Positions 4,483 through 61,137 of a stretch of DNA of 64,000 nt are shown piece after piece. The notes below the pieces were generated by a model. It saw only the letters and a list, made by a program, of their open reading frames with translations. It had not been told where the DNA came from and ran no database searches. A program made the position numbers and the translations under genes. Positions within the stretch are counted from its first letter, which is position 1. Every line of letters starts with the position of its first letter. Origin of the DNA: a virus; the IMG/VR virus record IMGVR_UViG_3300046532_001629, positions 1 to 64,000 of that record; one strand, written 5' to 3'.

Positions 4483-4494
4483 GTTCATAAACTG

Positions 4495-4502: not shown

Positions 4503-4532
4503 GTATTAGACGATTAATACTGGAATACAATT

Positions 4533-5348: not shown

Positions 5349-5352
5349 CCTA

Positions 5353-6204
5353 ATGCCGACTAATGTATTTTTTAACCATGCAGTCAGTACTGAACAACAT
5401 CTCTACGAAGATTTAGTTGTTGAATCACTTAGATTCTATGGACATGAGTGTTACTACTTACCGAGAGCCCTTGTCGAAGAGGACACGATTCTTGGTGAAG
5501 ACGTGCAATCCACTTTTGGTGATGCATATGCAGTTGAAATGTACATTGAGAACACAGACGGATTCGAAGGAGAGGGTGACCTTTTCAGTAAGTTCGGTGT
5601 TCAAGTACGTGACACTGCAACCTTCGTATTATCTTTAAGAACATGGGAGAGATTCATTTCCCTAGACTCAAACCTTGCAACAGCATTACGACCTAACGAA
5701 GGAGATTTGATCTACTTCCCTATGTCGGGTTCAATGTTCGAAATCAAATTTGTAGAACACGAGAATCCATTCTATCAAGTCGGTAAACTATTTGTATTCA
5801 AGATGCAGTGTGAACTGTTCGAATACAGTGGAGAAGATTTCGATACAGACATTGGTTCTATCGATGTTATTGAGAACGAACAAGCATACTCAATCGAGAT
5901 GACCATGAACAGTGGTTCGGGTGCATATGTTATTAACGAACCATTAACACTATCAGGTGTTACGGTTGGTGAGGTGTCTGCATGGGCCTTCTCTACAGAA
6001 ACCCTAAATATAGTACATAACACTAAGACACTTGCAGTTGGAGATTCTTTGGTCGGAACGATATCAGGATGTACTAGAACGATTGCATCTATTGTAGATG
6101 TGATGACATTTGCTAATGATGGTGGCGCACAGAATAAAGACTTTGAAGATAAGGATGGGTCATACTTAGACTTTAGTGAAACTAATCCATTCGGAGAACC
6201 ATAA
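5353..6204 (+). CDS. 14: Neck protein gp14-like
   Basis: A 283-residue protein, partner of gp13 in the neck. It begins with FFNHAVSTEQHLYEDLV and has the LRFYGHECYYLPR segment typical of marine T4-like gp14; T4 gp14 has 256 residues. AGGA at 5342-5345 overlaps the gp13 stop and lies 7 nt before this ATG, so the two genes are probably translationally coupled. The C-terminal third is Thr/Ser-rich beta sequence. Confidence 0.85.
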   Translation: MPTNVFFNHAVSTEQHLYEDLVVESLRFYGHECYYLPRALVEEDTILGEDVQSTFGDAYAVEMYIENTDGFEGEGDLFSKFGVQVRDTATFVLSLRTWERFISLDSNLATALRPNEGDLIYFPMSGSMFEIKFVEHENPFYQVGKLFVFKMQCELFEYSGEDFDTDIGSIDVIENEQAYSIEMTMNSGSGAYVINEPLTLSGVTVGEVSAWAFSTETLNIVHNTKTLAVGDSLVGTISGCTRTIASIVDVMTFANDGGAQNKDFEDKDGSYLDFSETNPFGEP

Positions 6205-11912: not shown

Positions 11913-11920
11913 TATAAATA
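11913..11920 (+). promoter_or_regulatory. Late promoter TATAAATA directly before gp20
   Basis: A perfect late octamer with only 5 nt (atagt) between it and the gp20 ATG. If transcription starts the usual ~6 nt downstream, the mRNA begins at the AUG. No ribosome-binding site can fit between them. Confidence 0.75.
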
Positions 11921-11925
11921 ATAGT

Positions 11926-13464
11926 ATGGAAATATTCGGATTTGAAATCGCTCGTAAAAAAGACGAGCTACGTGCAACGACTATCAACAAAGGACAGTCG
12001 TTTGTTCCACCAGTTGATGATGACGGTACACCAGTCATCTCACAACAAGCAGGTGGGTTTATATCGGGTGGAGCCTATGGCTCCTATGTCGATATGGAAG
12101 GTGGTATCAAGAGTGAGATTGAACTCATTCGAAAATACCGAGAGACATCGCTAGTCCCTGAATGTGACTCGGCGATCGAAGACATTATCAATGAGTGTAT
12201 CACATCGGATAGTTCTGATAGGATAGTCACACTCGACCTCAGAGATGTTAAACTCTCTGATAGTATCAGAAAGAAGATACAAGACGAGTTTACTAACATT
12301 CTATCACTAATGAAGTTCAATCAGAACTCTCATGAATTATTCAGAAAATGGTACGTTGATGGAAGAATTTACTTCCATAAGGTCGTTGACAGTAAACGCC
12401 CTAAACTTGGTATTGTTGATATTAGGAACGTTGACCCCTTGAAGATTAAGAAGGTCAGAAATGTTGAAGAAGAGAAAGGTAAGGACGGCGTAACAAGAAT
12501 TAAAAAAATTGAAGAATTTTATGTCTTCAATGATAAAGGTTTTGATAAGACTAGTGCCGTAGAAGGTGCAACTCTTAGAATTGCCCCTGAGGCAGTATGT
12601 TATACTACTTCGGGATTGTTGGATTATAACAAAAATGCAGTAATTGGATATATGCACAAGGCATTGAAGACTGCAAATCAGTTATCGATGATGGAAGATG
12701 CACTAGTGATCTATAGATTGTCTAGAGCTCCCGAAAGAAGAATTTTTTATATTGATGTTGGTAATTTACCTAAGGCAAAGGCCGAACAGTATCTTTCAGA
12801 GACAATGAATAAGTACAGAAATAAACTTATTTACAATGCAGATACAGGTGAGATCAAAGACGACAGAAAACATATGAGTATGTTGGAAGATTTTTGGTTA
12901 CCAAGAAGAGAAGGTGGTAGAGGAACGGAGATATCTACATTGCCAGGCGGACAAAACCTTGCAGAGATTGATGATGTAGAGTACTTCAAGAAGAAGTTAT
13001 ACCAGTCTCTTAATGTACCATCGTCTAGGATGGAATCAGATAATGGTTTCAACATGGGCAGGTCTTCAGAGATTAATAGGGACGAGTTGAAGTTCAACAA
13101 GTTCACAAACAGACTTCAGAAGAAGTTTGCTAGAGTATTTACAGATATCTTGAGAACTCAGATTATCTTAAAAGAAATTGCAAATGCTGAAGAGTTTGAC
13201 AAGATTAAAGATTTTATCCAGTATGATTTTACTGCAGATAACCACTTCACTGAGTTGAAGGAACAGGAAATTTTTAAGGAAAGATTAGATGCACTTCAAA
13301 ATGTATCAGAATATGTTGGTAAATATTTCTCACAAGAATATGTTAGAAAATATATACTACGACAAACAGAAGAAGAGATTGAGACCATTGATAAACAAAT
13401 TTCTACCGAGAAAGAGGCAGGAGTTGGTGGAGACGAAGATGATGGTGGATTCTCACAGTATTAG
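11926..13464 (+). CDS. 20: Portal protein gp20-like
   Basis: A 512-residue portal vertex protein (T4 gp20: 524). It has YGSYVDMEGG near residue 50, KYRETSLVPECDSAIEDIINE, and the LDYNKNAVIGYMHKALKTANQLSMMEDALVIYR-type helix common to T4-like portals, plus RSSEINRDELKFNKF near the crown. It is the dodecameric ring that nucleates head assembly and docks the terminase. It probably comes from a leaderless late transcript. Confidence 0.95.
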   Translation: MEIFGFEIARKKDELRATTINKGQSFVPPVDDDGTPVISQQAGGFISGGAYGSYVDMEGGIKSEIELIRKYRETSLVPECDSAIEDIINECITSDSSDRIVTLDLRDVKLSDSIRKKIQDEFTNILSLMKFNQNSHELFRKWYVDGRIYFHKVVDSKRPKLGIVDIRNVDPLKIKKVRNVEEEKGKDGVTRIKKIEEFYVFNDKGFDKTSAVEGATLRIAPEAVCYTTSGLLDYNKNAVIGYMHKALKTANQLSMMEDALVIYRLSRAPERRIFYIDVGNLPKAKAEQYLSETMNKYRNKLIYNADTGEIKDDRKHMSMLEDFWLPRREGGRGTEISTLPGGQNLAEIDDVEYFKKKLYQSLNVPSSRMESDNGFNMGRSSEINRDELKFNKFTNRLQKKFARVFTDILRTQIILKEIANAEEFDKIKDFIQYDFTADNHFTELKEQEIFKERLDALQNVSEYVGKYFSQEYVRKYILRQTEEEIETIDKQISTEKEAGVGGDEDDGGFSQY

Positions 13465-13473: not shown

Positions 13474-13650
13474 ATGAGTAGTGAAATAGCAAAAGAAATT
13501 GTAAATAGTATCGAAGCAGGAAATCTTAGTGATGCAAAAGATCAAATTGATCAAGGCATTAAAGAGAAAGCAGCCGAGACAGTAGACATGAAACGTGTCG
13601 GTTTACAGGTTGACTGGATGTCAACTACAACAGAACCACAAGGAATGTAA
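13474..13650 (+). CDS. Small prohead core protein, gp67-like by position
   Basis: A 58-residue ORF between gp20 and gp21, where T4 carries gene 67. The start at 13474 is chosen over the adjacent ATG at 13471 because AGGAG (13463-13467) is then 6 nt away. The protein is helical and charged (SSEIAKEIVNSIEAGNLSDA) with a conserved-looking VDMKRVGLQVDWM segment near the end. Its stop overlaps the next start (TAATG). In T4 such proteins are scaffold-core components degraded by the gp21 protease. The assignment rests on position, not sequence similarity. Confidence 0.6.
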   Translation: MSSEIAKEIVNSIEAGNLSDAKDQIDQGIKEKAAETVDMKRVGLQVDWMSTTTEPQGM

Positions 13651-13955
13651 TGAAGAGTTTCGTGCGGATTTCTAGAGAACTTAATGAGGCTAAGGTGAAA
13701 CTACCTAGTGGTCATAAAGAACTCAAGACTGATATTGTTAAAGTTGGTGGTAAACCAACGACTATCACTTACACTACTGCAAAAGGCAGAGTGTCCGTAT
13801 TCGTGAACGGTTCGGACTTTACAGGTGGTTCGCCATATAAGGATTTGGCTGCTGCAGAAAAAGAATTTAAAGACATCAAACAGGTTATGCAACAAATGGC
13901 TGAAGAAGGTGTCACAATAGAGGAAATCATTAATGAAATTAATAGCAGAGTTTAA
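13650..13955 (+). CDS. Prohead core protein, gp68-like by position
   Basis: A 101-residue protein between the gp67-like gene and gp21, matching T4 gene 68 in order. It begins MKSFVRISRELNEA. The MKSF/MKTF start and an LNE-Ala junction resemble T4 capsid-targeting and prohead-protease sites. AGGA (13641-13644) lies 5 nt upstream. The rest is a small beta domain (TTITYTTAKGRVSVFVNG) and a C-terminal helix. It overlaps gp21 by 23 nt. Likely a core component cleaved during head maturation. Confidence 0.55.
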   Translation: MKSFVRISRELNEAKVKLPSGHKELKTDIVKVGGKPTTITYTTAKGRVSVFVNGSDFTGGSPYKDLAAAEKEFKDIKQVMQQMAEEGVTIEEIINEINSRV

Positions 13956-14583
13956 CGAGAATATTGCACCGATCATTACCGAATCAACAAACGGTAAGAA
14001 GGATTACTTCATTGAAGGTGTCTTTATGCAAGCAGACATCAAAAACCGTAACGGTAGAGTCTATCCAAAAGAAATTATGGAGAAAGAAGTAGGTCGTTAC
14101 GTCAAAGAGTTCGTTGAGAAGCAACGTGCTTTCGGTGAGTTGGGACACCCTGAAGGGCCAACCATCAATCTCGACAAAGTATCACATCTTATCCAATCAT
14201 TGACTCTAGAAGGGTCAAACTATGTTGGTAAAGCAAAGATTTTAAGTACTCCAAACGGTGAGATTGTAAAAGCTCTCATTAATGATGGTGCTAAATTGGG
14301 TGTATCATCTAGAGGTCTAGGTTCACTAGAGCAAAAAGGTAATGCACAATACGTAAAAAACGATTTCCAACTTGCAACTGCAGGCGATATCGTGGCAGAC
14401 CCATCTGCCCCTGAGGCATTTGTCGAAGGAATCATGGAAGGTGTTGAGTGGATTATGGGTAAAAATGGAGTGTTAACTGCCGTGCAGGCAGAAGACTTCC
14501 AAAAAACCCTCAAGTCTGCACGACTAAATAACTTGGAAGAAACTAAGTTAAATCTATGGAAAAGGTTCGTTGAGAACCTCTAA
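13933..14583 (+). CDS. 21: Prohead maturation protease gp21-like
   Basis: A 216-residue serine protease of the T4 gp21 (herpesvirus protease-like) family; T4 gp21 has 212. It has the conserved FIEGVFMQADIKNRNGRVYPKEI segment and GELGHPEGP containing the catalytic His. SSRGLGSL contains the catalytic Ser, and DIVADPSAPEAFVEG follows. It cleaves scaffold, capsid and internal proteins after Glu in (L/I)xE-type sites. Candidate targets in this window are gp23, gp22, the gp68-like protein and the MKTF-type proteins at 26138, 59651 and 59826. Confidence 0.92.
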   Translation: MKLIAEFNENIAPIITESTNGKKDYFIEGVFMQADIKNRNGRVYPKEIMEKEVGRYVKEFVEKQRAFGELGHPEGPTINLDKVSHLIQSLTLEGSNYVGKAKILSTPNGEIVKALINDGAKLGVSSRGLGSLEQKGNAQYVKNDFQLATAGDIVADPSAPEAFVEGIMEGVEWIMGKNGVLTAVQAEDFQKTLKSARLNNLEETKLNLWKRFVENL

Positions 14584-24413: not shown

Positions 24414-26125
24414 TTATATTTAAAAAAGTACGGTGGAAGAACTTACTTTCATCGGGTAATAACTTTACCGAAATACAACTGGATTCCCATCAAACTACAC
24501 TGGTTCTAGGTGAGAACGGTGCAGGGAAATCTACACTACTAGACGCAATGTGCTTTGGTTTGTATGGACGTGGGTTCAGAAACCTCAAGAAAGAACTCCT
24601 TATTAATAGTGTAAACGAGAAAGGACTATTAGTAGAAGTAGAGTTTACTATCGGTAGACGTGAATACAAAGTTATCCGTGGTGCAAAACCAAACAAATTT
24701 GAGATACACGTGGATGGTGTATTCGTTAATCAAGACGCAACAGTAAGAGACTATCAAGAACACTTAGAGAAGAACATTCTCAAGATGTCGTATCGTTCAT
24801 TTACACAAGTTGCAATTCTAGGTAGTGCAAACTTCGTCCCCTTTATGCAGTTGAAAGCCAAGGACAGACGAAACCTTGTAGAAGACCTACTCGATATTAG
24901 TATCTTTAGTACGATGAGTGATATACTGAGAAAAAGAGTATCTAACCACACTGTAGAGATTCGAGAGAACGTCCATGAGATAAATATCATGGAAGAAAGA
25001 ATTCAAGGATTGTCCTCACAACTAGAAGCATTACGTGAGAACCGAGATCATAAGATTGGTAAGTTTGAAACAACTATCAACGAAACCAACACGAATATTG
25101 AAGACCTTTTAGGAAAGGTAGACGAGAAGACTACCGTTATCGGAGAGAAGACCAGTTCTATCTCTGATAGAGACCCACAAGGTGACCGACTTAAACAAGC
25201 AATGGATATTTCCAAAACACTGGAAACTAAACGACAACGCATTATTAAGGAGATTGAATTTTATGAGTCAAATGATAATTGTCCAACCTGTAAGCAGGAT
25301 TTAGATGAGGAACACAAAGAAACTCACGTTGCAGAGAAACAGGCAAAGAAGGAAGAGTTGGCACTTGCACTTGAGCAAATCGCCAGAACCATCGAAGATT
25401 CCACCAATAGAATGGAGGAGATTAGAAGAGTCCAAGAAGGAGTAGATTCCCTTCAACGACAAATCTCAGTTCTCCAATCAGAAATTGTTTCAAACCAAAA
25501 GTACATCGGCAAACTTCAGAAAGAGATTGAAGACCTAAAGACAGAAGCTTCGGTTAATAACAATGCACAGGATATGATTGACGACAACGAAGAGAAGTTG
25601 GATATACTACACTCTAAAAAAGAGTCCCTTGTATCACAGGGACACTACTACGACATTGCACAAACATTGCTCAGAGATCAAGGTGTTAAACAGAAGATAA
25701 TCAAACAGTACGTTCCAGTGATGAACAACATGATTAATAAATACCTTGCATCCCTAGAGTTCTTTGTTGGGTTTGAATTAGACGAATCTTTTGAAGAGAC
25801 TATTAAGTCTAGATTCCGAGACGTATTCAAGTACGACAATTTCTCCCAAGGAGAGAAGATGAGGATTGACCTTGCCCTTCTGTTTACGTGGAGAACTATT
25901 GCAAGAATGAAGAATAGTGTGAACACTAACCTATTGATTTTAGATGAAGTGTTCGACTCGTCTTTAGACACAAACGGCACAGATGACTTCTTAAAGTTAC
26001 TAAACACCTTGACAGAAAAGACTAACTGTTTTATAATTAGTCACAAGGGTGAAGCACTCTACGATAAATTTAACAATGTTATTCGATTTGAGAAGCATAA
26101 AAACTTCTCACGAGTTGCAGAATAG
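24410..26125 (+). CDS. 46: Recombination endonuclease subunit gp46-like (Rad50 family)
   Basis: A 571-residue SMC-like ATPase (T4 gp46: 560). Walker A is GENGAGKST at residues 34-42. Long coiled-coil arms flank a CPTCKQDL zinc-hook motif near residue 295, followed by the signature FSQGEKMRIDLAL and Walker B LLILDEVFDSS. It starts in a 4-nt overlap with gp47 and forms the end-processing complex with it. It supports recombination-dependent replication and host DNA degradation. Confidence 0.95.
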   Translation: MIIFKKVRWKNLLSSGNNFTEIQLDSHQTTLVLGENGAGKSTLLDAMCFGLYGRGFRNLKKELLINSVNEKGLLVEVEFTIGRREYKVIRGAKPNKFEIHVDGVFVNQDATVRDYQEHLEKNILKMSYRSFTQVAILGSANFVPFMQLKAKDRRNLVEDLLDISIFSTMSDILRKRVSNHTVEIRENVHEINIMEERIQGLSSQLEALRENRDHKIGKFETTINETNTNIEDLLGKVDEKTTVIGEKTSSISDRDPQGDRLKQAMDISKTLETKRQRIIKEIEFYESNDNCPTCKQDLDEEHKETHVAEKQAKKEELALALEQIARTIEDSTNRMEEIRRVQEGVDSLQRQISVLQSEIVSNQKYIGKLQKEIEDLKTEASVNNNAQDMIDDNEEKLDILHSKKESLVSQGHYYDIAQTLLRDQGVKQKIIKQYVPVMNNMINKYLASLEFFVGFELDESFEETIKSRFRDVFKYDNFSQGEKMRIDLALLFTWRTIARMKNSVNTNLLILDEVFDSSLDTNGTDDFLKLLNTLTEKTNCFIISHKGEALYDKFNNVIRFEKHKNFSRVAE

Positions 26126-26132
26126 ATAAATA
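26126..26132 (+). promoter_or_regulatory. Late promoter ATAAATA, leaderless arrangement
   Basis: ATAAATA, 5 nt (gtatt), ATG at 26138. The box overlaps the end of gp46 (stop 26123-26125) by adjacency only. Confidence 0.65.
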
Positions 26133-26137
26133 GTATT

Positions 26138-27625
26138 ATGAAAACATTTAAAGAACATCTGTTAACCGAAACCCCGATGGCAGCAAATTTCGAGGATATC
26201 TATAAACGCAAGAATAAAGATAAGTTCTTAGACAAAGCAGTCAAGGGTGAACTTGAATTAGAAGCTGGTGGAAAGATGAAAGCAATTTCAAAGGATGACT
26301 TTGCATTAAAGACCCTTATGTCAGTGGATAGTGAAGATGCTATCGAAGACAAGCCTGCAATTAGAAAACACCTGAAGACTAACTGGGGTATTGGTAAAAT
26401 CGGTGACATTAGTAAGGATATGAACGGCCTTTCTAATAGAGAAGGTGGTAAGAATCCTAGTGGAGAAGATTGGGAATCTCTCATTGCAGTTGCAGTAAAC
26501 CAAATCAATGGTCTTAAATATAACATTGGAGCTGAGTGGGAACGTGCAGAAAAGTTTTGGCCTGATTACGAACTCCAAGCAATAAAACTAGGCAAGGAAT
26601 TTATCAGTAAACTTAAGGTTAAGAGTCTCAGACAATTAGGTTCATCAACCGCTGCAACATCCGCAACATGGGATGCACCTAACAAGACACCTAAAACAGA
26701 TTTAATAGACGGTAAACAACACATATCACTTAAGATGCATGGTAACTCTCAGTTGATGTCGGGTAAGAAAGAAGAGGTTCTTGCAACCTTTAAAGCTGCC
26801 CAAGAGGAGTTTGGAGAATCTACAGCAGGAAAGGTGGAAATCAAAAAGGTTATGGATACTCTTGAAGAGAAGATGATTACATTAACAAATAAAGGTTCAG
26901 TTAAATCGATTGACGCTTTGAGAGGAAAGACTGACCTTTCAGACAAAGAATTGGAGAGAATTGCAGAGTTAGACCAAGGTCGATTACAAGCAAAAGAAAT
27001 CAATGATGAATTAGACAAGATATTTCAATCACTACCTTTTAAATCACACGTTGCATTTGAAGCTGCAACAGGTAGAAGTAAATTTGCACCATCCCCCGAG
27101 GCAGTTGCAAACTTAGTAGTAGTGTTCAAAGAGAGTGGTAGTATATCAGATACATTAAAACTAGACACGGCTGCATCAGCCGGAATGGTACTTGCAAAGG
27201 GTAATGATTTTTATGTGTCCTTTAAGAGTGGTGGTGGTAATAGTTCCAAACCATATCTTTCATTGAGAACTAGAAAATTAAAGCTGACAAGTTTAAAAGC
27301 GGTTAATGCCTCCTATGCAGATGATACTTTCCGTAGTATAATTATGGAAGAGATAAACAAAGAAGGGTTACTTACAGAAGACATGCAACAACTAGACGAG
27401 TTTGCATTATTTAATAAACTTGTAAGTAAAGTTAAAGATGTGTCAAAGTCAGTTATCAGTAAAGTTGGTAAGGCAATGAAAGCTATCTTAGAAAGAGTCA
27501 AGAAAGCTTTCCAGTACATTTACAAACTAGGTAGACAAGCAGTCAGGGGATTAATGAACTTCTTTGGCGTGAAGCTCGATAAAGTGAAGATAACCAAAAC
27601 TGGTGGAATGGTATCACTAGTATAA
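26138..27625 (+). CDS. Candidate capsid-packaged protein with possible PD-(D/E)XK-like nuclease core
   Basis: A 495-residue late protein starting MKTFKEHLLTE-Thr. This resembles the T4 internal-protein capsid-targeting sequence (MKTYQEF-type, cut after Glu by gp21). A conserved region (GEDWESLIAVAVNQ near 109-122, KTDLIDGKQHISLK at 186-199, then NSQLMSGK) resembles a PD-(D/E)XK nuclease with Asp188 and an SLK in place of ExK; this is tentative. A second LLTE at 411-414 separates a basic amphipathic C-terminus. It may be packaged, processed and injected to act on host DNA. Confidence 0.55.
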   Translation: MKTFKEHLLTETPMAANFEDIYKRKNKDKFLDKAVKGELELEAGGKMKAISKDDFALKTLMSVDSEDAIEDKPAIRKHLKTNWGIGKIGDISKDMNGLSNREGGKNPSGEDWESLIAVAVNQINGLKYNIGAEWERAEKFWPDYELQAIKLGKEFISKLKVKSLRQLGSSTAATSATWDAPNKTPKTDLIDGKQHISLKMHGNSQLMSGKKEEVLATFKAAQEEFGESTAGKVEIKKVMDTLEEKMITLTNKGSVKSIDALRGKTDLSDKELERIAELDQGRLQAKEINDELDKIFQSLPFKSHVAFEAATGRSKFAPSPEAVANLVVVFKESGSISDTLKLDTAASAGMVLAKGNDFYVSFKSGGGNSSKPYLSLRTRKLKLTSLKAVNASYADDTFRSIIMEEINKEGLLTEDMQQLDEFALFNKLVSKVKDVSKSVISKVGKAMKAILERVKKAFQYIYKLGRQAVRGLMNFFGVKLDKVKITKTGGMVSLV

Positions 27626-37877: not shown

Positions 37878-38149
37878 TGGATATTGCTCAGGCTATATCC
37901 GACTACGGATTCCCAATAGTAATGTCAGTTGGACTGGGTTACTTCATCTATTATGTTTGGTGGTTCATCGGAGAACACATCGAACCCCAAATTGAAAAAA
38001 TGCATTTTGCACTTATTAAAGTGATAGATCAAGTTAGAATGTTAGATCAAGATTTAATTCGTTTGCAACAAAAGGTAAACGTGGTTCTCGAAATGAAGGA
38101 GAACCTAAAAAAGAAAGCAGGAGAAAACGATAATGGAAAAGAAAACTAA
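37877..38149 (+). CDS. YvrJ-like membrane/coiled-coil protein before csgF
   Basis: A 90-residue protein with a GTG start confirmed by AAGGAG (37865-37870) 6 nt upstream; it overlaps the preceding stop. ISDYGFPIVMSVGLGYFIYYVWW resembles the short YvrJ-type membrane motif (YGFPI), followed by a coiled coil (MLDQDLIRLQQKVNVVLEMKENL). Tandem with a similar protein and overlapping csgF, it may be part of the secretion unit. Confidence 0.6.
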   Translation: MDIAQAISDYGFPIVMSVGLGYFIYYVWWFIGEHIEPQIEKMHFALIKVIDQVRMLDQDLIRLQQKVNVVLEMKENLKKKAGENDNGKEN

Positions 38150-38618
38150 ACTAGTTCTGTGGGGTTCTGCAATTGTATTGTCACTTGCAATCTTTAGCAC
38201 AGGTGTTAAATCAGACGAAATAGTGTTTGGATTTAAGAGTCCGTCCTTCAGTGGTGCTGGCCAGTCGTCACACTATCTCACCATTGAGAACCAAGAGAAA
38301 TCAAGACGTGATAAAATTGAACAAGGTATAGAAGATAAGATTAAACAAGCAGAGAGAGATGCTTCGAACACTACACTAGCTAAGTTTTTGAGAAATGTGG
38401 AGAGCAGAATTTATGCTCAGATAGCAAAACAGTTAGTAGAGAATATGTTTTCTAATGGAGAGGGCGCAGATTACGGCACATTTACCATCGAAGGAAATAC
38501 TGTGACGTATGAGAAAATGATTGGTGAAGATGGTGGAGAATTTATAAGATTGACAATTGTATCTGAGGATGGAACAACAACGACTTTGGATATACCAGTC
38601 GGCACTGGCGGGTTCTAG
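38133..38618 (+). CDS. csgF: CsgF-like curli assembly factor
   Basis: A 161-residue exported protein: signal peptide (LVLWGSAIVLSLAIFSTGVKS), then EIVFGFKSPSFSG, matching the start of mature CsgF (FxFxxPxFGG). It has central helices and a C-terminal strand (RLTIVSEDGTTTTLDIPVG) like the TGxTxxIxV end of CsgF. E. coli CsgF has 138 residues; here an extra Lys/Glu/Arg-rich helix is inserted. In curli, CsgF sits at the CsgG pore and couples secretion to nucleation. The adjacent csgG supports the call. Confidence 0.75.
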   Translation: MEKKTKLVLWGSAIVLSLAIFSTGVKSDEIVFGFKSPSFSGAGQSSHYLTIENQEKSRRDKIEQGIEDKIKQAERDASNTTLAKFLRNVESRIYAQIAKQLVENMFSNGEGADYGTFTIEGNTVTYEKMIGEDGGEFIRLTIVSEDGTTTTLDIPVGTGGF

Positions 38619-38620
38619 AA

Positions 38621-39505
38621 GTGAGACAACTTGCAATAGTTGGCCTCTTGACGGTTTTGTTCACCACTGGGTGTGCAAGTGTTCCGTCTATGACTGATAG
38701 TTGCACGTCTATTGTAATGAGTAGAGTGGGAGAGTGTATTGAAGAAGCAGAGATAGTTAAGATACCCACGTATCAAGAACTTGCTGATCTTCCCCCAGCA
38801 ACGAATATGCCAGTGGTTGCAGTCTATGCTTTCCTAGATAAGACAGGACAACGAAAGAGAATGGATGGAGTCGCATCGTTCTCAACTGCAGTAACACAAG
38901 GTGCAGAATCATTTCTAATTGATGCACTTAAAACTGCAGGGAAAGGGAAGTGGTTTAGAGTAGTAGAACGAACAAGTCTTGATGCACTCGTAAGAGAGAG
39001 ACAGATCATTCGTTCTACTAGAGAAGATTTTGCAACGAAAGAAGGTAATGAAGATGCCCCAACAGGTATTCAACCTTTGCTCTTTGCAGGAATCCTACTG
39101 GAAGGTGGGATTGTTGGTTATGATACTAACATTGAAAGCGGTGGTAGAGGAGCAAGATTCCTAGGAATCGGGTCTTCTGTTTCTTATCGAAGAGATGTGG
39201 TTACTGTAAGTTTGAGAGGAATATCAACACTTACAGGTGAGATTTTGTTAAATGTGCAGACTAAGAAGACGATACTCAGCACAGGTGGAGGTTATGATGT
39301 ATTCCGTTTCGTTGATATGGATACGAAATTAGTGGAAATAGAAGATGGTGTGGCTTTTAATGAGGGAGTTACGAAAGCAACTCGTTCAGCAATAGAACTA
39401 GCCGTCCTCGAACTTATATACCAAGGACACGATAGAGGTTTTTGGGTAATTACGGATAAACATCTTAACGATGAACATCCAATAGGAGAAACAGATGAAG
39501 AATAA
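38621..39505 (+). CDS. csgG: CsgG-like outer-membrane secretion lipoprotein
   Basis: A 294-residue lipoprotein: signal peptide with lipobox TTGC (Cys18), then the CsgG core: PVVAVYAFLDKTGQR, WFRVVERTSLDALVRERQI, LLFAGILLEGGIVGYDTN, SYRRDVVTVSLRGISTLTGEIL. E. coli CsgG has 277 residues and forms a nonameric outer-membrane channel. The GTG start has only a weak GGCGGG upstream. In a phage this could export the curlin-like proteins or act as an outer-membrane pore. Confidence 0.9.
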   Translation: MRQLAIVGLLTVLFTTGCASVPSMTDSCTSIVMSRVGECIEEAEIVKIPTYQELADLPPATNMPVVAVYAFLDKTGQRKRMDGVASFSTAVTQGAESFLIDALKTAGKGKWFRVVERTSLDALVRERQIIRSTREDFATKEGNEDAPTGIQPLLFAGILLEGGIVGYDTNIESGGRGARFLGIGSSVSYRRDVVTVSLRGISTLTGEILLNVQTKKTILSTGGGYDVFRFVDMDTKLVEIEDGVAFNEGVTKATRSAIELAVLELIYQGHDRGFWVITDKHLNDEHPIGETDEE

Positions 39506-40223
39506 ATTATTACTCATTATGTTAACATTAGGATTATCATCTCAGGCTTTTGCTGGAGATGACGATAACGAAATATGGCTACAGCAAAGTGGTACTGGAT
39601 TGACTTTAAACTTGACCCAAAAAGGTTATGGTAACAAAGTTGGTGGAGATGACTTTAGTGGAACATCAATTGATATGATTTTAACTGGTGCAACAAACAG
39701 TTTAACTCTTATCCAGTATGGTGACTCTAACAAACTATACGGCCCTTTCCTTGCAGATACGTCAACAGTAAACTTAACGTTCACTGGTGATAGTAACTCG
39801 ATGGACTGGAACTTTGGTTATGTTGGAAGTGCAGATAGTGCCAATATGTTAGGAACCATTACAGGTTCATCTAACACATTTGACATCGATGTTGGTTACG
39901 AGGCATCTGCTGAATACTTAAACTGGGACTTAGTAACAACTGGTTCAAGTAACGTATTCACAACTAAAATAGATAGTGATAACGCCGTTTGGAATTGGAC
40001 TGTTACAGGTTCGTCAAACGACATCAATACACTCATGGCTGATGCTACAGATAATTCATTAACTGCAGTTCTAACTGGTTCTTCAAATGATATTGATATC
40101 ATTCAGAAGAGTGGTTCAGATACAGGTTGCCCAACTGGTCAATCTTGTAGTGGTATTATTGACGTATCCTTTGTGACCTCTAATGCAAATATTGACATCG
40201 TTCAACAAGACGATAACGATTAG
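39495..40223 (+). CDS. Curlin-like repeat protein 1
   Basis: A 242-residue secreted protein with a signal peptide (KLLLIMLTLGLSSQAFA) and repeats of about 25-35 residues built on T/S-G-(S/D)-S-N-x-hydrophobic strands. Examples are TNSLTLIQYGDSN, SNSMDWNF, SNTFDIDV, SNDINTL and SNDIDIIQ. Ser/Asn/Gln spacing resembles curlin (SxxxxxQxxxxN) and predicts a beta-solenoid/amyloid. It starts inside the csgG end and is the likely CsgG substrate. Asp-rich ends may keep it soluble. Confidence 0.7.
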   Translation: MKNKLLLIMLTLGLSSQAFAGDDDNEIWLQQSGTGLTLNLTQKGYGNKVGGDDFSGTSIDMILTGATNSLTLIQYGDSNKLYGPFLADTSTVNLTFTGDSNSMDWNFGYVGSADSANMLGTITGSSNTFDIDVGYEASAEYLNWDLVTTGSSNVFTTKIDSDNAVWNWTVTGSSNDINTLMADATDNSLTAVLTGSSNDIDIIQKSGSDTGCPTGQSCSGIIDVSFVTSNANIDIVQQDDND

Positions 40224-41322
40224 TTTTCTACTTATCGGTTCATTAGCACTTGGTGCTGAACCGATAGGGGAGATTACAGAATATAAAGGGTCGGCTGGAA
40301 TGTCACGTGACGGAGAGTCTTCCGTCATTGATGCTTCTGCCGAATCCGATGTGCTTATCTATGATACTGCACAGACTCAGAATGGACGAATGAAAATTCA
40401 GTTCATTGGTGATGAAGAATTAGAATTAACAGAACACTCAAAAGTTTGGATTGACGAGGTCTATTACGACCCCGACCCCTCAAAGTCAAAGATGGTCATG
40501 AGAATGGCATCAGGCACCGCTCGATTTGCTTCGGGTTTCGGTGGAAAGATAAAGAAAAGTAACATAAATATCAGTACACCTACTGCACAAATCACAGTTC
40601 GTGGCACCGACTTCACCACAAGTATTGATGAGATCGGAAGGTCATTGGTAATTTTACTGCCTGATAGATGGGGAAACCCTTCAGGAGTTGTAATTGTAAG
40701 TAATGCAGGAGGAACGGTGACACTAGACGAGGCTTACCAAGCAACGATGGTGAGTACATATGACGATTCTCCAACTAAACCAGTTGTAGTGAACGGTATA
40801 ACACCAAATTTGATTGATAACATGTTTATTGTTAATCCACCCGATGAGGTCACGAAACAAGTATCCGAAGAATCGAGTTCTTCAGAGAACGATTCGAGTA
40901 ATGTTCTTGATGTGGATTTTCTAGAATTCAATGATCTAGAAGAGGATTACTTCGAAGACGATGAATTGGAATACACAGAGCTCGACAGAGATTTATTGGA
41001 TGTTGATTTCTTACAGGATTTACTTGATGTTATCGTAGGAATAGACAAAAAGGTTGGACTAGATAGACAAGCTAGTAAAGCATTTGGAGTAGTAAGAATT
41101 GACGGAACACTTCCAGGCTTTGACAAGGATACACAATACTCAACTATTGTAGATTCAGGTCTAGGTCAGGTTTGGTTCTATAGGGAAGTTAGTGGAATTA
41201 TTTCCATTAGATTACCAATACACGCTCAGGCGAGTATTAGAACCATAACAGACGAAAAAGAGTCATCAATTACGATGGGTGATGGTTCGTCTCTAAATAT
41301 AACTATCACACAAACAAACTAG
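40183..41322 (+). CDS. FecR-domain secreted protein
   Basis: A 379-residue protein with a signal peptide (TISFLLIGSLALGA) and a FecR domain: GEITEYKGSAGM, ALYD-type QTQNGRMKIQFIGDEELELTEHSKV, and the conserved ISTPTAQITVRGTDFTTSI. The middle is acidic and Ser/Glu-rich, and the end is beta-rich. It overlaps curlin-like 1 by 41 nt in another frame. FecR-domain proteins sense or scaffold at the envelope, and fecR genes lie with csgG in several bacterial export loci. A periplasmic or surface partner of the fibre proteins is likely. Confidence 0.72.
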   Translation: MQILTSFNKTITISFLLIGSLALGAEPIGEITEYKGSAGMSRDGESSVIDASAESDVLIYDTAQTQNGRMKIQFIGDEELELTEHSKVWIDEVYYDPDPSKSKMVMRMASGTARFASGFGGKIKKSNINISTPTAQITVRGTDFTTSIDEIGRSLVILLPDRWGNPSGVVIVSNAGGTVTLDEAYQATMVSTYDDSPTKPVVVNGITPNLIDNMFIVNPPDEVTKQVSEESSSSENDSSNVLDVDFLEFNDLEEDYFEDDELEYTELDRDLLDVDFLQDLLDVIVGIDKKVGLDRQASKAFGVVRIDGTLPGFDKDTQYSTIVDSGLGQVWFYREVSGIISIRLPIHAQASIRTITDEKESSITMGDGSSLNITITQTN

Positions 41323-41331
41323 GAGATATTA

Positions 41332-41478
41332 ATGAATATTAGGGAAAAATTACGAGGGTGGCACGAAGATCAAATCTACGGATTTCAAAAGGCCACTCGA
41401 CTCGATGATTACCATATGTATTGGGTATCATTCGCAGAAGGGATTATACTTACATTATTATTTTTGTGGCTAATCTAA
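41332..41478 (+). CDS. Small C-tail-anchored membrane protein in the curli island
   Basis: A 48-residue protein with AGGAG (41321-41325) 6 nt upstream. A charged N-terminal part (REKLRGWHEDQIYGFQKATRLDD) precedes one C-terminal hydrophobic helix (FAEGIILTLLFLWLI). It sits between fecR and curlin-like 2, probably at the inner membrane. No family recognised. Confidence 0.55.
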   Translation: MNIREKLRGWHEDQIYGFQKATRLDDYHMYWVSFAEGIILTLLFLWLI

Positions 41479-41482
41479 ACAC

Positions 41483-42277
41483 ATGAAAAAGTTTTTATCA
41501 TTCTTAGTTATGTTACCTTTGGTAGTCTTCGCAACTGATGACAACAAGGTTGATGTGAACACGACAGGGAGTCAGTCAAACGACTCCCTTGTCTTCAATG
41601 TAACTCAAATAGGTTACGACAACGACACCATCTTTACAATAGGTGGGTCATCAAATTCAATACTCATCAAGCAAGAAGGAAACAACAACGAGATTTCCTT
41701 CGTAGATTACTGGGGTTCGGGAGAAACTTGGGGTGGAGACCTCGATGGTAATTCTAATGCATTGCACTTCGAACAAAGTGGAACTGGTTCTAAGAACGAT
41801 ATAGGATTCCACATACAAGGAAATACCAATGCTGTTCGATGGGGACAAGGAACAGTACTCAATAATTCATCCGACACCACATTTGATTCTGCCTCAGCTG
41901 TCGCAGACGATGGTGGTCATAAACTAAACCTAGACATCCATGGAAGTGATAACACACTCATAGGATATCAGAAATCCAATTTGGTAAATGGTGGAGACCA
42001 TACTGCAACGGTATATTTTTACAGCGATAATAACACTGCATGGTTACGGCAACAAGGTGCTGGTGATAAGACTCTCTATCTGAGAACGAACAACGATGAT
42101 AACGTAGTAAACAGTAATCAAAAAGGAAGTGGGGATCATACGACATCCATTACACTTGGTGGTTCATACGGAACTACACTCAACCTAATACAAAATAGTT
42201 CATCAAACCAGTCATACAACCTTACACAAAGCTGCGTCACAGCTGGTGGTTGTACACTAACAATGACACAAGAATAA
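41483..42277 (+). CDS. Curlin-like repeat protein 2
   Basis: A 264-residue secreted protein: signal peptide (FLSFLVMLPLVVFA), then curlin-type strands such as SNSILIKQEGNNNEISF, SNALHFEQSGTGSKNDIGF, NTAWLRQQGAGDKTLYL and TTLNLIQNSSSNQSYNLTQ. The Ser-x5-Gln-x4-Asn-x5-Gln pattern is clearer than in protein 1. Two Cys near the end (SCVTAGGC) may form a disulfide. The two proteins could be a major/minor fibre pair analogous to CsgA/CsgB. Confidence 0.72.
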   Translation: MKKFLSFLVMLPLVVFATDDNKVDVNTTGSQSNDSLVFNVTQIGYDNDTIFTIGGSSNSILIKQEGNNNEISFVDYWGSGETWGGDLDGNSNALHFEQSGTGSKNDIGFHIQGNTNAVRWGQGTVLNNSSDTTFDSASAVADDGGHKLNLDIHGSDNTLIGYQKSNLVNGGDHTATVYFYSDNNTAWLRQQGAGDKTLYLRTNNDDNVVNSNQKGSGDHTTSITLGGSYGTTLNLIQNSSSNQSYNLTQSCVTAGGCTLTMTQE

Positions 42278-42414
42278 TGGATTCACGAACACTCATAATG
42301 GTAAACGAATACCGAATCTCCCAACGCAAAAAGTTTTGGAGAAAGATTCTTGCAGCGTTTATTGCAGGAACTTGTCTTGGTCTTGCACTTTATGTTTTCT
42401 TTTACCATATGTAA
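42277..42414 (+). CDS. Small one-helix membrane protein in the curli island
   Basis: A 45-residue ORF overlapping the curlin-like 2 stop (TAATG). A basic N-terminus (YRISQRKKFWRK) precedes one hydrophobic helix (ILAAFIAGTCLGLALYVFFY). The positive-inside rule predicts the N-terminus in the cytoplasm. It lies directly before the iscU late promoter. Function unknown. Confidence 0.55.
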   Translation: MDSRTLIMVNEYRISQRKKFWRKILAAFIAGTCLGLALYVFFYHM

Positions 42415-42417
42415 ACC

Positions 42418-42424
42418 CTAAATA
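42418..42424 (+). promoter_or_regulatory. Late promoter CTAAATA, leaderless arrangement before iscU
   Basis: CTAAATA, 5 nt (actat), ATG at 42430. Confidence 0.65.
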
Positions 42425-42429
42425 ACTAT

Positions 42430-42861
42430 ATGGCATATTCTAAAGAAGTAGTAGAACGGTTTGAAGCAGTAATTGCTAACCCTCTAAAACATGCTGTCGG
42501 TTCACTCGACAGGAAAAACCCCAAGGTTGCAACAGGACTTGCAGGAGCTCCTGCATGTGGTGATGTGATGCAACTACAACTCTTACTTGATGACAACGAA
42601 AAGATTGTTGATGTCAAATTCAAGACTTACGGATGTGGAAGTGCAATTGCATCTTCGTCATTGTTCGTAGATTTAATGATGGGTAAGACGATTGCAGAAG
42701 CAAAACTAATCAAAGACAAAGACATTGCAGATGCACTACAACTTCCACCAATCAAATTACATTGTTCAGTACTAGCCGAGGACGCCATCAAACAAGCGAT
42801 GGTGGATTACGAGTCAAAACAATCAAAAGACTACAAACACCCGATCTTAGATCACGTTTGA
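42430..42861 (+). CDS. iscU: IscU-like iron-sulfur cluster scaffold
   Basis: A 143-residue protein with the full IscU ligand set: PACGD (Cys43, Asp45), YGCGSAIASSS (Cys69) and PPIKLHCSVLAEDAI (His111, Cys112). It assembles Fe-S clusters for transfer to target enzymes. No IscS or other isc gene is nearby, so host partners would be needed. It is late-expressed and presumably leaderless, and followed by the adenylate cyclase. It may support Fe enzymes during late infection. Confidence 0.9.
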   Translation: MAYSKEVVERFEAVIANPLKHAVGSLDRKNPKVATGLAGAPACGDVMQLQLLLDDNEKIVDVKFKTYGCGSAIASSSLFVDLMMGKTIAEAKLIKDKDIADALQLPPIKLHCSVLAEDAIKQAMVDYESKQSKDYKHPILDHV

Positions 42862-42878
42862 TTCAGAGGTGACAACTA

Positions 42879-44720
42879 GTGTATAGTTGGAAATCCGTTT
42901 TAGTAACCATTGCGTTACTGCTCACACTTAAGATTTGGAATCCGTATTTCATTGAAAACATTTCGTGGACATGGTTTGATTACCTACACCAATCACAAGA
43001 AATTGTCCAAGTTGATGATATTGTTTTGGTGGACATCGATGAGAGATCGTTGGAAGAATTCGGTCAATATCCCATACCTCGGGGCATTTATCGTGACCTT
43101 CTCCTTAACAGTCATTTCTCTAATACCAGTGTCTTTACCATACTCTTTAGTGAACCTGATCGTGACCCCCTACAGGACGAGATTCTCTCAGAGGGACTTG
43201 TCAATCGATTGACAATCATATCCTCTTCACCAACTATTCAAAAAGACAGTGGCAGTGCGCCATTCGTTGGTAACTCTACATTCGGTGGAGGTGACGCAAA
43301 GAATTGGTTATGGAATTTCTCAGGTATAACATCTCCCCTTAAGATACTTCAGGATAATACTTACGGTGTTGGAGTGAGTGTTGCAACACCTAGTGTAACA
43401 GGAACACCAAACTTTGACGGCACAACACGGTCTGCACCCCTCATTGTTACTGCAAACAATCAAGTCTATCCATCCATTGCACTCGAAACACTTCGTGCAT
43501 TAAAAGACCAACCAAGTTACCAAACAAAAATTACTCCTGAGATGGGAGTGGAGTGGATTAGGATGGGAAGAGATAAACCTATCTCCACCACCCCAACCAG
43601 TGATGTTATGGTGTCCTATTGGAATGGTTTCCAAAGGATTTCTGCTGTAGACCTACCCGACTCTAACCTAGAGAATAAGATTTTAGTGTGGGGGTTAACT
43701 GCAGAGGGATTGAACAATCCAGTTTCAACTCCAGTGGGAGTAATGTATCCCCACGAAGTTCAAGCACACCTAATTCAAACCGTCTTGACAGGAGTTCAAA
43801 TAAAACAATCCTACTATCTTGAATTGCTTGAATCTGTTCTTCTTCTGATAAGTTTGATAATGATAATGGTGATGGTTTACAAACTGCCCACAGCTCTTTC
43901 GGGGGTAGTGAGTCTAGGACTTGTAGTACTTCAGGTGGGTGGGAGTTATTACATTTGGACTTCAGAGCTCGTTCTTTTCGATACCTTCTTTTCATCTATG
44001 GCCTCCTTAGTAGTGTTTGGTCATGCATCTTTCAATCAATACTATACAACCTACAAACTCAAAGAAGAAATCAAGAAGCAGTTCCAAAAGTATTTATCTC
44101 CTGACATGGTTGACGCACTCGCAAAAGACCCATCTTTATTGAAATTAGGTGGAGATAGAAAGGAACTTACATTCATGTTTATGGACATCTGTGGATTCAC
44201 CCCTATAAGCGAACACTACATGAAACAAGATGACCCCGAAGGATTAGTAGAACTGATTAACAAATTCCTTGACATGCAGACTAAGATAATCCTAAATAAT
44301 GGTGGTACTATAGACAAGTATATGGGCGACTGTATCATGTCATTTTGGAATGCACCTCTTGATTGTCCCGAACATGCAGAACTTGCCGTCAAGTCTGCAG
44401 AAGAGATATTAATTGCAACCAAGGAACTTAATGACGAACTCAAACCTCTCGGTCTTCCACCCATTAACGTGGGCATTGGTATTAATACTGGCGAGTGTAT
44501 CGTTGGAAACATGGGCTCAGAACTTAGATTTGACTATTCCGTCATTGGAGATGCCGTCAACCTTGGTGCTAGACTCGAAAGCCAAACACGAAATTATGAT
44601 GGGGTGGACGTGTTGTTGGGCGAAGAAACATATCGACAGTGTCCATCTAGAACATTCTCTGAAGTTGACAGAATCACAGTCAAGGGTAAATCAGAACCAG
44701 TTACAGTTTACACTATCTGA
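42879..44720 (+). CDS. CHASE2-domain adenylate cyclase (class III)
   Basis: A 613-residue membrane receptor cyclase. A first helix (~8-20) leads into a periplasmic CHASE2 sensor (~30-305, with DDIVLVDIDERSLEEFGQYPIPR). Three helices (~312-385) and a linker precede a class III catalytic domain. All catalytic residues are visible: metal Asp436 (FMDICGFT) and Asp484 (DKYMGD), adenine-selecting Lys480 and Asp558, and transition-state Asn561 and Arg565 (NLGARLES). It therefore should make cAMP in response to an extracytoplasmic signal. GTG start with GAGG 9 nt upstream. Confidence 0.9.
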   Translation: MYSWKSVLVTIALLLTLKIWNPYFIENISWTWFDYLHQSQEIVQVDDIVLVDIDERSLEEFGQYPIPRGIYRDLLLNSHFSNTSVFTILFSEPDRDPLQDEILSEGLVNRLTIISSSPTIQKDSGSAPFVGNSTFGGGDAKNWLWNFSGITSPLKILQDNTYGVGVSVATPSVTGTPNFDGTTRSAPLIVTANNQVYPSIALETLRALKDQPSYQTKITPEMGVEWIRMGRDKPISTTPTSDVMVSYWNGFQRISAVDLPDSNLENKILVWGLTAEGLNNPVSTPVGVMYPHEVQAHLIQTVLTGVQIKQSYYLELLESVLLLISLIMIMVMVYKLPTALSGVVSLGLVVLQVGGSYYIWTSELVLFDTFFSSMASLVVFGHASFNQYYTTYKLKEEIKKQFQKYLSPDMVDALAKDPSLLKLGGDRKELTFMFMDICGFTPISEHYMKQDDPEGLVELINKFLDMQTKIILNNGGTIDKYMGDCIMSFWNAPLDCPEHAELAVKSAEEILIATKELNDELKPLGLPPINVGIGINTGECIVGNMGSELRFDYSVIGDAVNLGARLESQTRNYDGVDVLLGEETYRQCPSRTFSEVDRITVKGKSEPVTVYTI

Positions 44721-46184: not shown

Positions 46185-46203
46185 TAGTATAATGGAGACT
46201 ATG

Positions 46204-54437: not shown

Positions 54438-54445
54438 AAAAAATG

Positions 54446-54452: not shown

Positions 54453-54457
54453 TGAGT

Positions 54458-59651: not shown

Positions 59652-59839
59652 TGAAATCCTTTAAACACTTTAATGAGTCGATTATGATACCCATAAATAT
59701 AGGAGATGTCGTCCTTGGTGGAAAATTCAAGAATAAGAAAATTGTCGTCAAAGAGATCGGTAGAAACGAGAAGGGTGACATTACTATCAATGGAAGACCA
59801 TTATTAAAATTTAGGATTATGCCGAATGAAAACGTTTAA
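59651..59839 (+). CDS. Small protein with MKSF-type capsid-targeting-like start
   Basis: A 62-residue protein starting MKSFKHFNES, similar to the N-termini at 26138 and 59826 and to T4 internal-protein targeting sequences. The remainder is a small beta barrel (IGDVVLGGKFKNKKIVVKEIG, then DITINGRPLLKFRI) of KOW/SH3 appearance. It overlaps the next gene by 14 nt. It may be packaged in the head; speculative. Confidence 0.5.
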   Translation: MKSFKHFNESIMIPINIGDVVLGGKFKNKKIVVKEIGRNEKGDITINGRPLLKFRIMPNENV

Positions 59840-61133
59840 CAAATTTTTAACTGAAGCAACTGGTAAGGGTGCAGTGTTCTCCTTTGGAAGATTCAACCCA
59901 CCCACCACTGGTCATGCAAAGTTGGTAAACAAACTACAGTCAGTCTCGGGTGGTTATACACCTCTAGTGTTCACTTCACACTCAAATGACAAGGTTAAGA
60001 ACCCCCTATCACATGTAGACAAGATCAAGTTCCTTAGACAGTTCTTTGGTAAGATCATTGTTGATACCGCTGCAAGAACAGTATTTGACATTGCAGTAGA
60101 ATTAGAACGACAGGGTTACAAAAAAATTAAGATGGTAGTAGGTTCGGACAGAGTTAGAGAGTTCGATATGTTGTTGAAGAAGTACAACGGAGTCAAAGCA
60201 CGACACGGTTACTACAAGTTTGATCAGATCGAAATTGTATCTGCAGGGGAGAGAGACCCCGATGCAGATGACACTAGTGGTATGAGTGCATCCAAAATGA
60301 GACAGTATGCAGAGGACGGAGACTTTGATAACTTCAAAGACGGTGTTCCATCTACTAACAAAGCACAACAGAAACAACTGTACAATGCAGTAAGACGAGG
60401 TATGGGACTTACTGAAGGAACACTGCCGTTTTATATGCAGACCGATATACAGGAAGACGAATTACAAGAAGGGGTCTATGACCAAGGAATCTTCAAAGCA
60501 TTATTCCTAATGGGTGGCCCAGGCTCAGGTAAAACAACAGTTGTTAAAGCACTATCACTACACACTATGGGTCTCAAAATGATTAATAGTGATCAACATT
60601 TCGAAAGAATGATGACCACTGCAAAGATGTCTATGAAGATGACTTCAGATGGTAGTGGTGAAGTCAATCCCGAAAGAGATGGGATGAGAGCAAAGGCAAA
60701 GAAAATAGCAGGAAAACAAATGGACTTGTACATTCCCAATAGATTGGGTCTAGTATTTGACACTACTAGTGCAAAAGCCAGTAAGATTAAAGACTATAAG
60801 GCACAATTAGATGCATTGGGATATGAATCCAAGATGGTATTCGTTAAAACAAGTCTAGAACTTGCACTAAAACTCAATGATTTAAGAGCTCGAACAGTTC
60901 CCCCTGAAGTAGTTAAGATGGAACACGATGCAGTAGAGACTAATGCAAAACTATTCAAGACCATGTTCAGAACAGGGTTTATAGAGATTGAAAATAACGA
61001 TACCGCTGCATCACTAAAGAAGACTGCAGACAGTCACTTTGGTAGTATCTCTGCATGGGCAAAGAAATTTCCCACTAATGCCAGAGCTATTGCATGGAAA
61101 ACACGAGAACTACTTTTAAAAAAGACTAAATAG
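59826..61133 (+). CDS. NMNAT-like nucleotidyltransferase fused to a P-loop kinase, capsid-targeting-like N-terminus
   Basis: A 435-residue protein starting MKTFNKFLTE-Ala, a T4-type capsid-targeting/gp21 site. Residues 15-150 are a cytidylyltransferase/NMNAT-like domain (FSFGRFNPPTTGHAKLV at 18-34, an HxGH variant; MSASKMR near 153 is the ISSTxxR equivalent). Residues ~225-420 are a P-loop kinase (Walker A GGPGSGKTT, 230-238). LTE-Gly (195-198) and LQE-Gly (213-216) between them look like protease sites. The domain pair suggests NAD or nucleotide metabolism. Confidence 0.7.
   Translation: MKTFNKFLTEATGKGAVFSFGRFNPPTTGHAKLVNKLQSVSGGYTPLVFTSHSNDKVKNPLSHVDKIKFLRQFFGKIIVDTAARTVFDIAVELERQGYKKIKMVVGSDRVREFDMLLKKYNGVKARHGYYKFDQIEIVSAGERDPDADDTSGMSASKMRQYAEDGDFDNFKDGVPSTNKAQQKQLYNAVRRGMGLTEGTLPFYMQTDIQEDELQEGVYDQGIFKALFLMGGPGSGKTTVVKALSLHTMGLKMINSDQHFERMMTTAKMSMKMTSDGSGEVNPERDGMRAKAKKIAGKQMDLYIPNRLGLVFDTTSAKASKIKDYKAQLDALGYESKMVFVKTSLELALKLNDLRARTVPPEVVKMEHDAVETNAKLFKTMFRTGFIEIENNDTAASLKKTADSHFGSISAWAKKFPTNARAIAWKTRELLLKKTK
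61126..61132 (+). promoter_or_regulatory. Late promoter CTAAATA, leaderless arrangement
   Basis: CTAAATA, 5 nt (gtatt), ATG at 61138. The downstream 5 nt are identical to those at 26133-26137. Confidence 0.65.
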
Positions 61134-61137
61134 TATT

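What the first reader, a model, noticed from the sequence alone, without database searches (positions are those of the whole stretch)
26138..27625. Possible packaged, self-processing nuclease with T4-type capsid-targeting N-terminus
The protein starts MKTFKEHLLTE-Thr, close to the T4 internal-protein targeting sequence, and repeats LLTE before a cationic amphipathic C-terminal segment. The central region has a PD-(D/E)XK-like pattern (Asp188, then SLK at 197-199). This suggests a nuclease packed in the head, trimmed by gp21 and injected with the DNA, perhaps against host DNA or co-infecting phage. The C-terminal helix could act on membranes.
Basis: partly seen in the sequence, partly recalled or inferred. 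Interest (0 to 1): 0.68.

Follow-up and report, generated by a model that had tools for sequence, protein, structure and literature searches.

The report
Nuclease-fold protein packed inside phage heads
A marine T4-like phage, and hundreds of its relatives, carry a DNA-cutting-type protein with a tag that in phage T4 sends proteins into the virus head, so it is probably injected into the next host together with the viral DNA.

Summary
It belongs to an un-annotated family with hundreds of relatives in viral contigs (at least 494 stretches). The central domain (aa 104-384) folds with high confidence (AlphaFold2 pLDDT 94.9, pTM 0.91). Its best structural matches, far above the rest, are the PD-(D/E)XK restriction enzymes HinP1I (Z 8.9) and MspI (Z 8.7). 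In 60 diverse members, cyanophage ones included, Glu113, Lys186-Thr187-Asp188, Ser197-x-Lys199 and Glu308 are invariant. The N-terminus MKTFKEHLLTE matches the T4 internal-protein tag MKTYQEFIAE. An L-x-E site sits before a cationic amphipathic C-tail in 79 of 80 members; bare-core cyanophage orthologues lack both tag and tail. A T4-type late-promoter box lies 5 nt before the ATG, and a prohead protease is encoded. T4 Alt is known to be trimmed at both ends in this way, and a neighbouring gene's product with the same tag was found in S-SM1 virions. Best reading: a late-made, prohead-targeted nuclease, trimmed at both ends by the prohead protease in trans (not self-processing) and injected. Nuclease activity, virion presence and target are untested. 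The membrane role is unlikely if the tail is removed.

The parts
26125..26132 (+). T4-type late promoter box GATAAATA, ending 5 nt before the ATG
   Evidence: sequence. ATAAATA lies within 60 nt upstream in 37 of 78 family members against 12% of other ORFs
26138..27625 (+). whole ORF, 495 aa
   Evidence: homologues
26138..26170 (+). capsid-targeting sequence MKTFKEHLLTE (aa 1-11), predicted prohead-protease cut after Glu11
   Evidence: matches T4 IPII/IPIII MKTYQEFIAE; recurrent in family, absent in cyanophage type
26171..26446 (+). variable linker aa 12-103
   Evidence: absent in HTVC008M-type members, where the tag abuts the core
26447..27289 (+). PD-(D/E)XK-fold core, aa 104-384
   Evidence: AF2 pLDDT 94.9, pTM 0.91; VIA-align HinP1I Z 8.9, MspI Z 8.7
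26474..26476 (+). Glu113, invariant, first core helix
26699..26701 (+). Asp188, invariant (motif KTD)
26726..26734 (+). Ser197-Leu198-Lys199, the '(D/E)xK' position; Ser and Lys invariant in 60 members
27059..27061 (+). Glu308, invariant
27224..27226 (+). Lys363, nearly invariant (FKS strand)
27371..27379 (+). predicted C-terminal cut site LTE412-414
   Evidence: site conserved in 79 of 80 members
27392..27400 (+). second predicted C-terminal cut site LDE419-421
   Evidence: nearly invariant Glu421
27401..27622 (+). cationic amphipathic C-tail aa 422-495 (+14), predicted propeptide
   Evidence: family-specific
13933..14583 (+). prohead protease (gp21 type), the enzyme expected to cut the two sites
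   Evidence: PF03420 E 9.8e-38
59826..61133 (+). second tag-bearing enzyme (MKTFNKFLTE-A): cytidylyltransferase/NMNAT-like plus P-loop kinase
   Evidence: a cytidylyltransferase relative with MKKFSAFLNE-A was found in S-SM1 virions

Best explanation
It is an internal head protein of a T4-like marine myovirus that carries a PD-(D/E)XK-fold nuclease. It is transcribed late, drawn into the prohead core by its N-terminal targeting sequence, and trimmed by the prohead protease after Glu11 and after Glu414/Glu421, which removes the cationic amphipathic tail. The mature nuclease domain (about aa 12-414) is then sealed in with the genome and ejected into the next host, where it cuts DNA, most likely host or other foreign DNA, in the first minutes of infection. 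Shown here: fold, invariant catalytic-type residues, both cut-site motifs and their joint presence or absence, late box, and the protease gene. Inferred: packaging, cutting, nuclease activity, ejection, target.
For: Fold: HinP1I Z 8.9 (189 aligned of 247) and MspI Z 8.7, next unrelated row Z 4.4; further PD-(D/E)XK rows are RecE 3.7, Hjc 3.4 and restriction enzyme 3ndh 3.2; same two top hits with the full-length model. Invariant E113, K186-T187-D188, S197, K199, E308 in 60 sequences down to 14% identity. Tag matches T4 IPII/IPIII. Tag and C-site are both present in the main family and both absent in all 11 cyanophage-type members and in Mel-JY01. T4 Alt is cut at ITE-6 and LTE-619 with 63 C-terminal residues removed (PMC5694885). 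Late box 5 nt before ATG, enriched in the family. gp21-type protease in 10 of 10 family-bearing records. T4-GC190 cytidylyltransferase found in S-SM1 virions (PMC3037559) is SSM1_190, two genes from the S-SM1 family member, and starts MKKFSAFLNE-A.
Against: No virion proteomics for any tag-bearing member of this family was found. The second acidic residue is Ser in all members. No profile-level link to HinP1I: hhalign probability 0.1%, scores below shuffles. Foldseek found no significant PDB match. What protects the packaged genome is unknown; the window's C5-methyltransferase is present in only 4 of 25 family-bearing records. The tag regex also fires on up to 15% of other ORFs, a count inflated by redundant family copies and tagged neighbours.
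Confidence: 0.64

Rival explanations
1. A packaged nuclease that works inside or at the head rather than in the next host: a debranching or resolvase-type enzyme that trims DNA during packaging, doing the job of T4 gp49 (endonuclease VII).
For: No endonuclease VII (PF02945) in 13 family-bearing phage records searched (one of them, S-SM1, in two copies), while the T4 positive control is found. The PD-(D/E)XK fold includes resolvases; Hjc is a weak row. The cyanophage orthologue sits beside the primase-helicase and UvsX.
Against: It would be packed into the prohead core before DNA entry, which is not needed for gp49-like work. Best structural matches are site-specific restriction enzymes, not resolvases. 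Family-free relatives were not checked for gp49.
Confidence: 0.15
2. A cytoplasmic DNA-metabolism nuclease that is not packaged; the MKTF..LTE start and the C-terminal LLTE are incidental or serve another purpose.
For: The cyanophage version has no tag and no tail and lies in the replication cluster. No direct virion evidence for this protein.
Against: Tag and C-site occur and vanish together, match T4 tags, and come with a late box. A tag-bearing neighbour's relative was found in virions.
Confidence: 0.15
3. A packaged protein with a nuclease fold but no catalysis: a DNA-binding or decoy protein, for example an anti-restriction factor like T4 IPI.
For: T4 IPI is an injected restriction inhibitor (PMC3012670). 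Ser replaces the second acidic residue.
Against: E113, D188, S197, K199 and E308 are invariant across 60 very divergent members, which is not expected of a dead enzyme. A Pfam R-HINP1I family member also has SLK after KTD.
Confidence: 0.06

Closest known systems
T4 internal head proteins IPII/IPIII (and IPI)
   Same: N-terminal MKT[FY]xE...[LI]xE tag with an L/I-x-E cut site; prohead protease present in the phage; late-type promoter box
   Different: T4 internal proteins are small and of other folds; this one carries a 280-aa nuclease-fold domain and a second, C-terminal cut site
T4 Alt (ejected ADP-ribosyltransferase)
   Same: packaged enzyme with both N-terminal (ITE-6) and C-terminal (LTE-619) prohead-protease sites, about 63 residues removed at the C-terminus (PMC5694885); here LTE-11 and LTE-414/LDE-421, 74-81 residues
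   Different: nuclease fold instead of ADP-ribosyltransferase; dual processing here is predicted, not measured
HinP1I and MspI (PD-(D/E)XK type II restriction enzymes)
   Same: overall fold over the whole domain (Z 8.9 and 8.7); order Glu helix, KTD, xLK; a Pfam R-HINP1I member (L218) even has SLKK
   Different: no sequence-profile match; no consistent cognate methyltransferase; phage-encoded
phrog_22045 (cyanophage S-IOM18 SWYG_00149, S-SM1 SSM1_188)
   Same: orthologous core with the same invariant residues, same neighbourhood with DUF6267 and cytidylyltransferase
   Different: no targeting tag, no C-terminal site, no tail; unknown function

Membership tests
T4-type internal (ejected) head protein | N-terminal capsid-targeting sequence ending in [LI]-x-E | tested here: met
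   MKTFKEHLLTE against IPII/IPIII MKTYQEFIAE; recurrent in the family
T4-type internal (ejected) head protein | phage encodes the prohead protease | tested here: met
   PF03420 in the window and 10 of 10 family-bearing records
T4-type internal (ejected) head protein | late expression | tested here: inconclusive
   GATAAATA box 5 nt upstream, enriched in the family; no transcription data
T4-type internal (ejected) head protein | present in virions, cleaved, ejected | not testable with these tools
   needs virion mass spectrometry; only a neighbour's relative has such data
PD-(D/E)XK nuclease superfamily | alpha-beta core fold | tested here: met
   HinP1I Z 8.9, MspI Z 8.7, large gap to the next rows
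PD-(D/E)XK nuclease superfamily | conserved Asp of motif II and Lys of motif III | tested here: met
   D188 and K199 invariant in 60 members
PD-(D/E)XK nuclease superfamily | acidic residue (D/E) two before the Lys | tested here: not met
   Ser197 in all members; replacements occur in accepted members (a R-HINP1I Pfam member with SLK), so it is described as having this fold, a SxK variant
PD-(D/E)XK nuclease superfamily | metal-dependent DNA cleavage | not testable with these tools
   needs an enzyme assay
HinP1I (PF11463) / MspI (PF09208) families | profile match to the family | tested here: not met
   no Pfam match; hhalign prob 0.1% and scores below shuffles against R-HINP1I sequences
HinP1I / MspI restriction-modification systems | accompanied by a cognate DNA methyltransferase | tested here: not met
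   C5-methyltransferase in 4 of 25 family-bearing records, absent from complete HTVC008M and S-SM1; N6/N4 methyltransferases not scanned

The most novel reading that the evidence does not exclude
A nuclease pro-enzyme: the prohead protease both delivers and arms it, by cutting off the targeting tag and the cationic tail inside the prohead. Marine T4-like phages would then inject an armed DNA-cutting enzyme with their genome, as part of a suite of head-packed enzymes encoded together (nuclease, DUF6267 with ligase-like motifs, NMNAT-like and kinase domains).
Probability: 0.3. Interest if true: 0.82.

Novelty: new variant of a known kind. Interest (0 to 1): 0.62.

Why it matters
T4 internal proteins are few and mostly of unknown function, and the role of Alt's two propeptides is an open question in the literature (PMC5694885). 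This family, with hundreds of relatives in viral contigs including phages of SAR11 (Pelagibacter) and OM43-type (Methylophilales) bacteria, gives an enzyme-type cargo with both tags and a natural control group: orthologues without tag and tail. It makes testable what the head tags do and whether these phages inject DNA-cutting enzymes.

Tried and rejected
No Pfam, PHROG, PADLOC or PDB sequence match to the window protein worth keeping; weak hits are coiled-coil noise. Foldseek against PDB gave nothing significant; only the VIA-align second look showed HinP1I/MspI. Profile comparison with three R-HINP1I proteins fetched from genomes failed, MspI family not found in the sampled genomes. Self-protection by the window's C5-methyltransferase: not general. 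C-tail as a module shared with other packaged proteins: tail models hit nothing credible outside the family. Self-processing: no protease signature. Bacterial origin: one genome scan (85k species) gave only two MAG contigs, plasmids none. The supplementary proteome table of S-SM1 (Table S8) could not be read, so whether SSM1_188 is in virions is unknown.

Full report
Observation. The ORF at 26138-27625 is intact and 495 aa long, with N-terminus MKTFKEHLLTE-T, a second LLTE at 411-414, and KTPKTD188...IS197LK199 as reported. It lies between gp46 and a peptide deformylase in a T4-like phage record of 69,778 bp. It has no Pfam, PHROG or PDB sequence match of its own.

Family. tblastn finds relatives in Pelagibacter phage HTVC008M (gp126), the Methylophilales Melnitz phages and Microcystis phage Mel-JY01, all 'hypothetical'. 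Profile scans of viral contigs find at least 494 and 331 matching stretches. A structure search pointed to cyanophage proteins. These proved to be phrog_22045 (S-IOM18 SWYG_00149, S-SM1 SSM1_188), found by the family profile at E 1.3e-7 in a small set, and located in the same neighbourhood (UvsX, primase-helicase, this gene, DUF6267, cytidylyltransferase). Outside phages almost nothing was found.

Core domain. An alignment of 60 cores down to 14% identity keeps E113, K186, T187, D188, S197, K199, E308, G312 and F316 invariant, and Q205, S208 and K363 nearly so. AlphaFold2 on this alignment gives pLDDT 94.9, pTM 0.91. VIA-align ranks HinP1I (Z 8.9, 189 aligned) and MspI (Z 8.7, 183 aligned) first over the whole domain, then drops to Z 4.4; weaker rows include RecE, Hjc and a restriction enzyme, all PD-(D/E)XK by established knowledge. 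The full-length model gave the same top two. Foldseek alone gave no significant PDB match, and profile comparison with R-HINP1I proteins failed. The link is therefore at the level of fold and motif order, not family. The second acidic residue is Ser in every member; one R-HINP1I Pfam member fetched here also has KTD followed by SLKK.

Head targeting. T4 IPII and IPIII start MKTYQEFIAE-A. Family members start MKTFKEHLLTE-A, MKSFNAFLAE-A, MKGFKEYINE-A, MMKTYRQFINE-E, MQTFKQYISE-G and so on; a strict pattern fits 45 of 81, and several 'no' cases are near misses. None of the 11 cyanophage-type members fits. In HTVC008M-type members the tag is followed almost at once by the core. In the window only two other ORFs have such a start: a small gene in the portal-protease gap, where T4 has core genes 67/68 (by position and general knowledge), and the cytidylyltransferase-kinase at 59826. 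External support: S-SM1 virion proteomics found the cytidylyltransferase T4-GC190 (PMC3037559), which is SSM1_190 with N-terminus MKKFSAFLNE-A. NMNAT-like proteins recur in cyanophage virion proteomes, though the authors of PMC10665884 note that contamination is possible.

C-terminal site. 79 of 80 members with a full tail carry [LI]xE 50-100 residues from the end, against 39.7 expected by shuffling, and at near-constant places. The exception, Mel-JY01, also lacks the tag, and the cyanophage type lacks both. T4 Alt is cut at ITE-6 and LTE-619, losing 63 C-terminal residues, and its authors ask whether the two propeptides target, tether or control (PMC5694885). The window protein's tail after Glu421 has charge +14 and is strongly amphipathic. 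If cut, it would be gone, or free, before DNA packaging, which weakens the idea that it acts on the next host's membrane. A gp21-type protease gene is in the window and in 10 of 10 tested records, so processing in trans is expected, not self-processing.

Expression. GATAAATA ends 5 nt before the ATG, as does the portal gene's box. ATAAATA lies within 60 nt upstream in 37 of 78 members against 12% of other ORFs (related sequences, so the Fisher p of 7e-13 overstates). This agrees with late synthesis of a head protein.

Mechanism and rivals. The best account is a late-made, prohead-delivered, doubly trimmed and injected nuclease; the target (host or foreign DNA) is the least certain step. The C5-methyltransferase in the window would be an attractive self-protection partner, but it is in only 4 of 25 family-bearing records and not in complete HTVC008M or S-SM1. 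T4 gp49 (endonuclease VII) is undetected in the family-bearing records searched while T4 itself scores, so a gp49-like role remains a rival. An unpackaged replication nuclease is the other main rival; the untagged cyanophage form may be just that, and the tagged form a derivative of it.

Novelty. Packaged T4 internal proteins and dual trimming are known; a nuclease-fold cargo with both signals, in a large unannotated marine family, is to my knowledge new, hence a new variant of a known kind.

Noticed in passing
window 26127-26138, 11915-11926, 61127-61138, and across loci: TAAATA boxes sit exactly 5 nt before start codons far more often than at other spacings (37 cases at 5 nt against 1-4 at 4, 6 and 7 nt), suggesting leaderless or near-leaderless late mRNAs.
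   Followed up: partly
window 58274-59476: DUF6267 (PF19782, phrog_455) has KWDGAPAI and EGYVAV...KLVDR, which look like motifs I, IV and V of covalent nucleotidyltransferases (DNA/RNA ligases); in relatives it can carry the head tag (L066 7172: MLKFNDFLTE-D). No PDB sequence hit.
   Followed up: partly
window 59826-61133: NMNAT/cytidylyltransferase-like domain fused to a P-loop kinase, with tag MKTFNKFLTE-A and LTE/LQE sites between the domains: another likely head-packed enzyme.
   Followed up: partly
window 61138-62562: Protein with a C-terminal HNH domain directly after the NMNAT-kinase gene; part of the same cluster.
   Followed up: no
window 46192-47481: C5-cytosine DNA methyltransferase (PF00145), present in only 4 of 25 family-bearing records.
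   Followed up: yes
window 13650-13955: 101-aa protein MKSFVRISRELNE-A between portal and prohead protease, in the position of T4 core genes 67/68.
   Followed up: partly
L025 4990-6000, L044 4966-6000: These members carry an extra N-terminal domain with RPRPQKL...PSGHATEG...HYPSD, resembling a PAP2-type phosphatase, fused in front of the nuclease core.
   Followed up: no
L007 7245-8375 and 8384-9451; L076, L078, L086 about 4340-5917: Tandem or divergent paralogues next to the main gene, with the same tag-core-site-tail layout in L007.
   Followed up: partly
L005 8001-9477: The gene is split into two overlapping ORFs (196 and 304 aa), a frameshift or assembly error in a 78%-type relative.
   Followed up: no
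window 38133-44720: Genes like curli assembly/transport (as annotated in HTVC008M) followed by an adenylate/guanylate cyclase-like gene.
   Followed up: no
window 54443-54931: Staphylococcal-nuclease homologue (PF00565) without a head tag, between DNA polymerase and UvsX.
   Followed up: no
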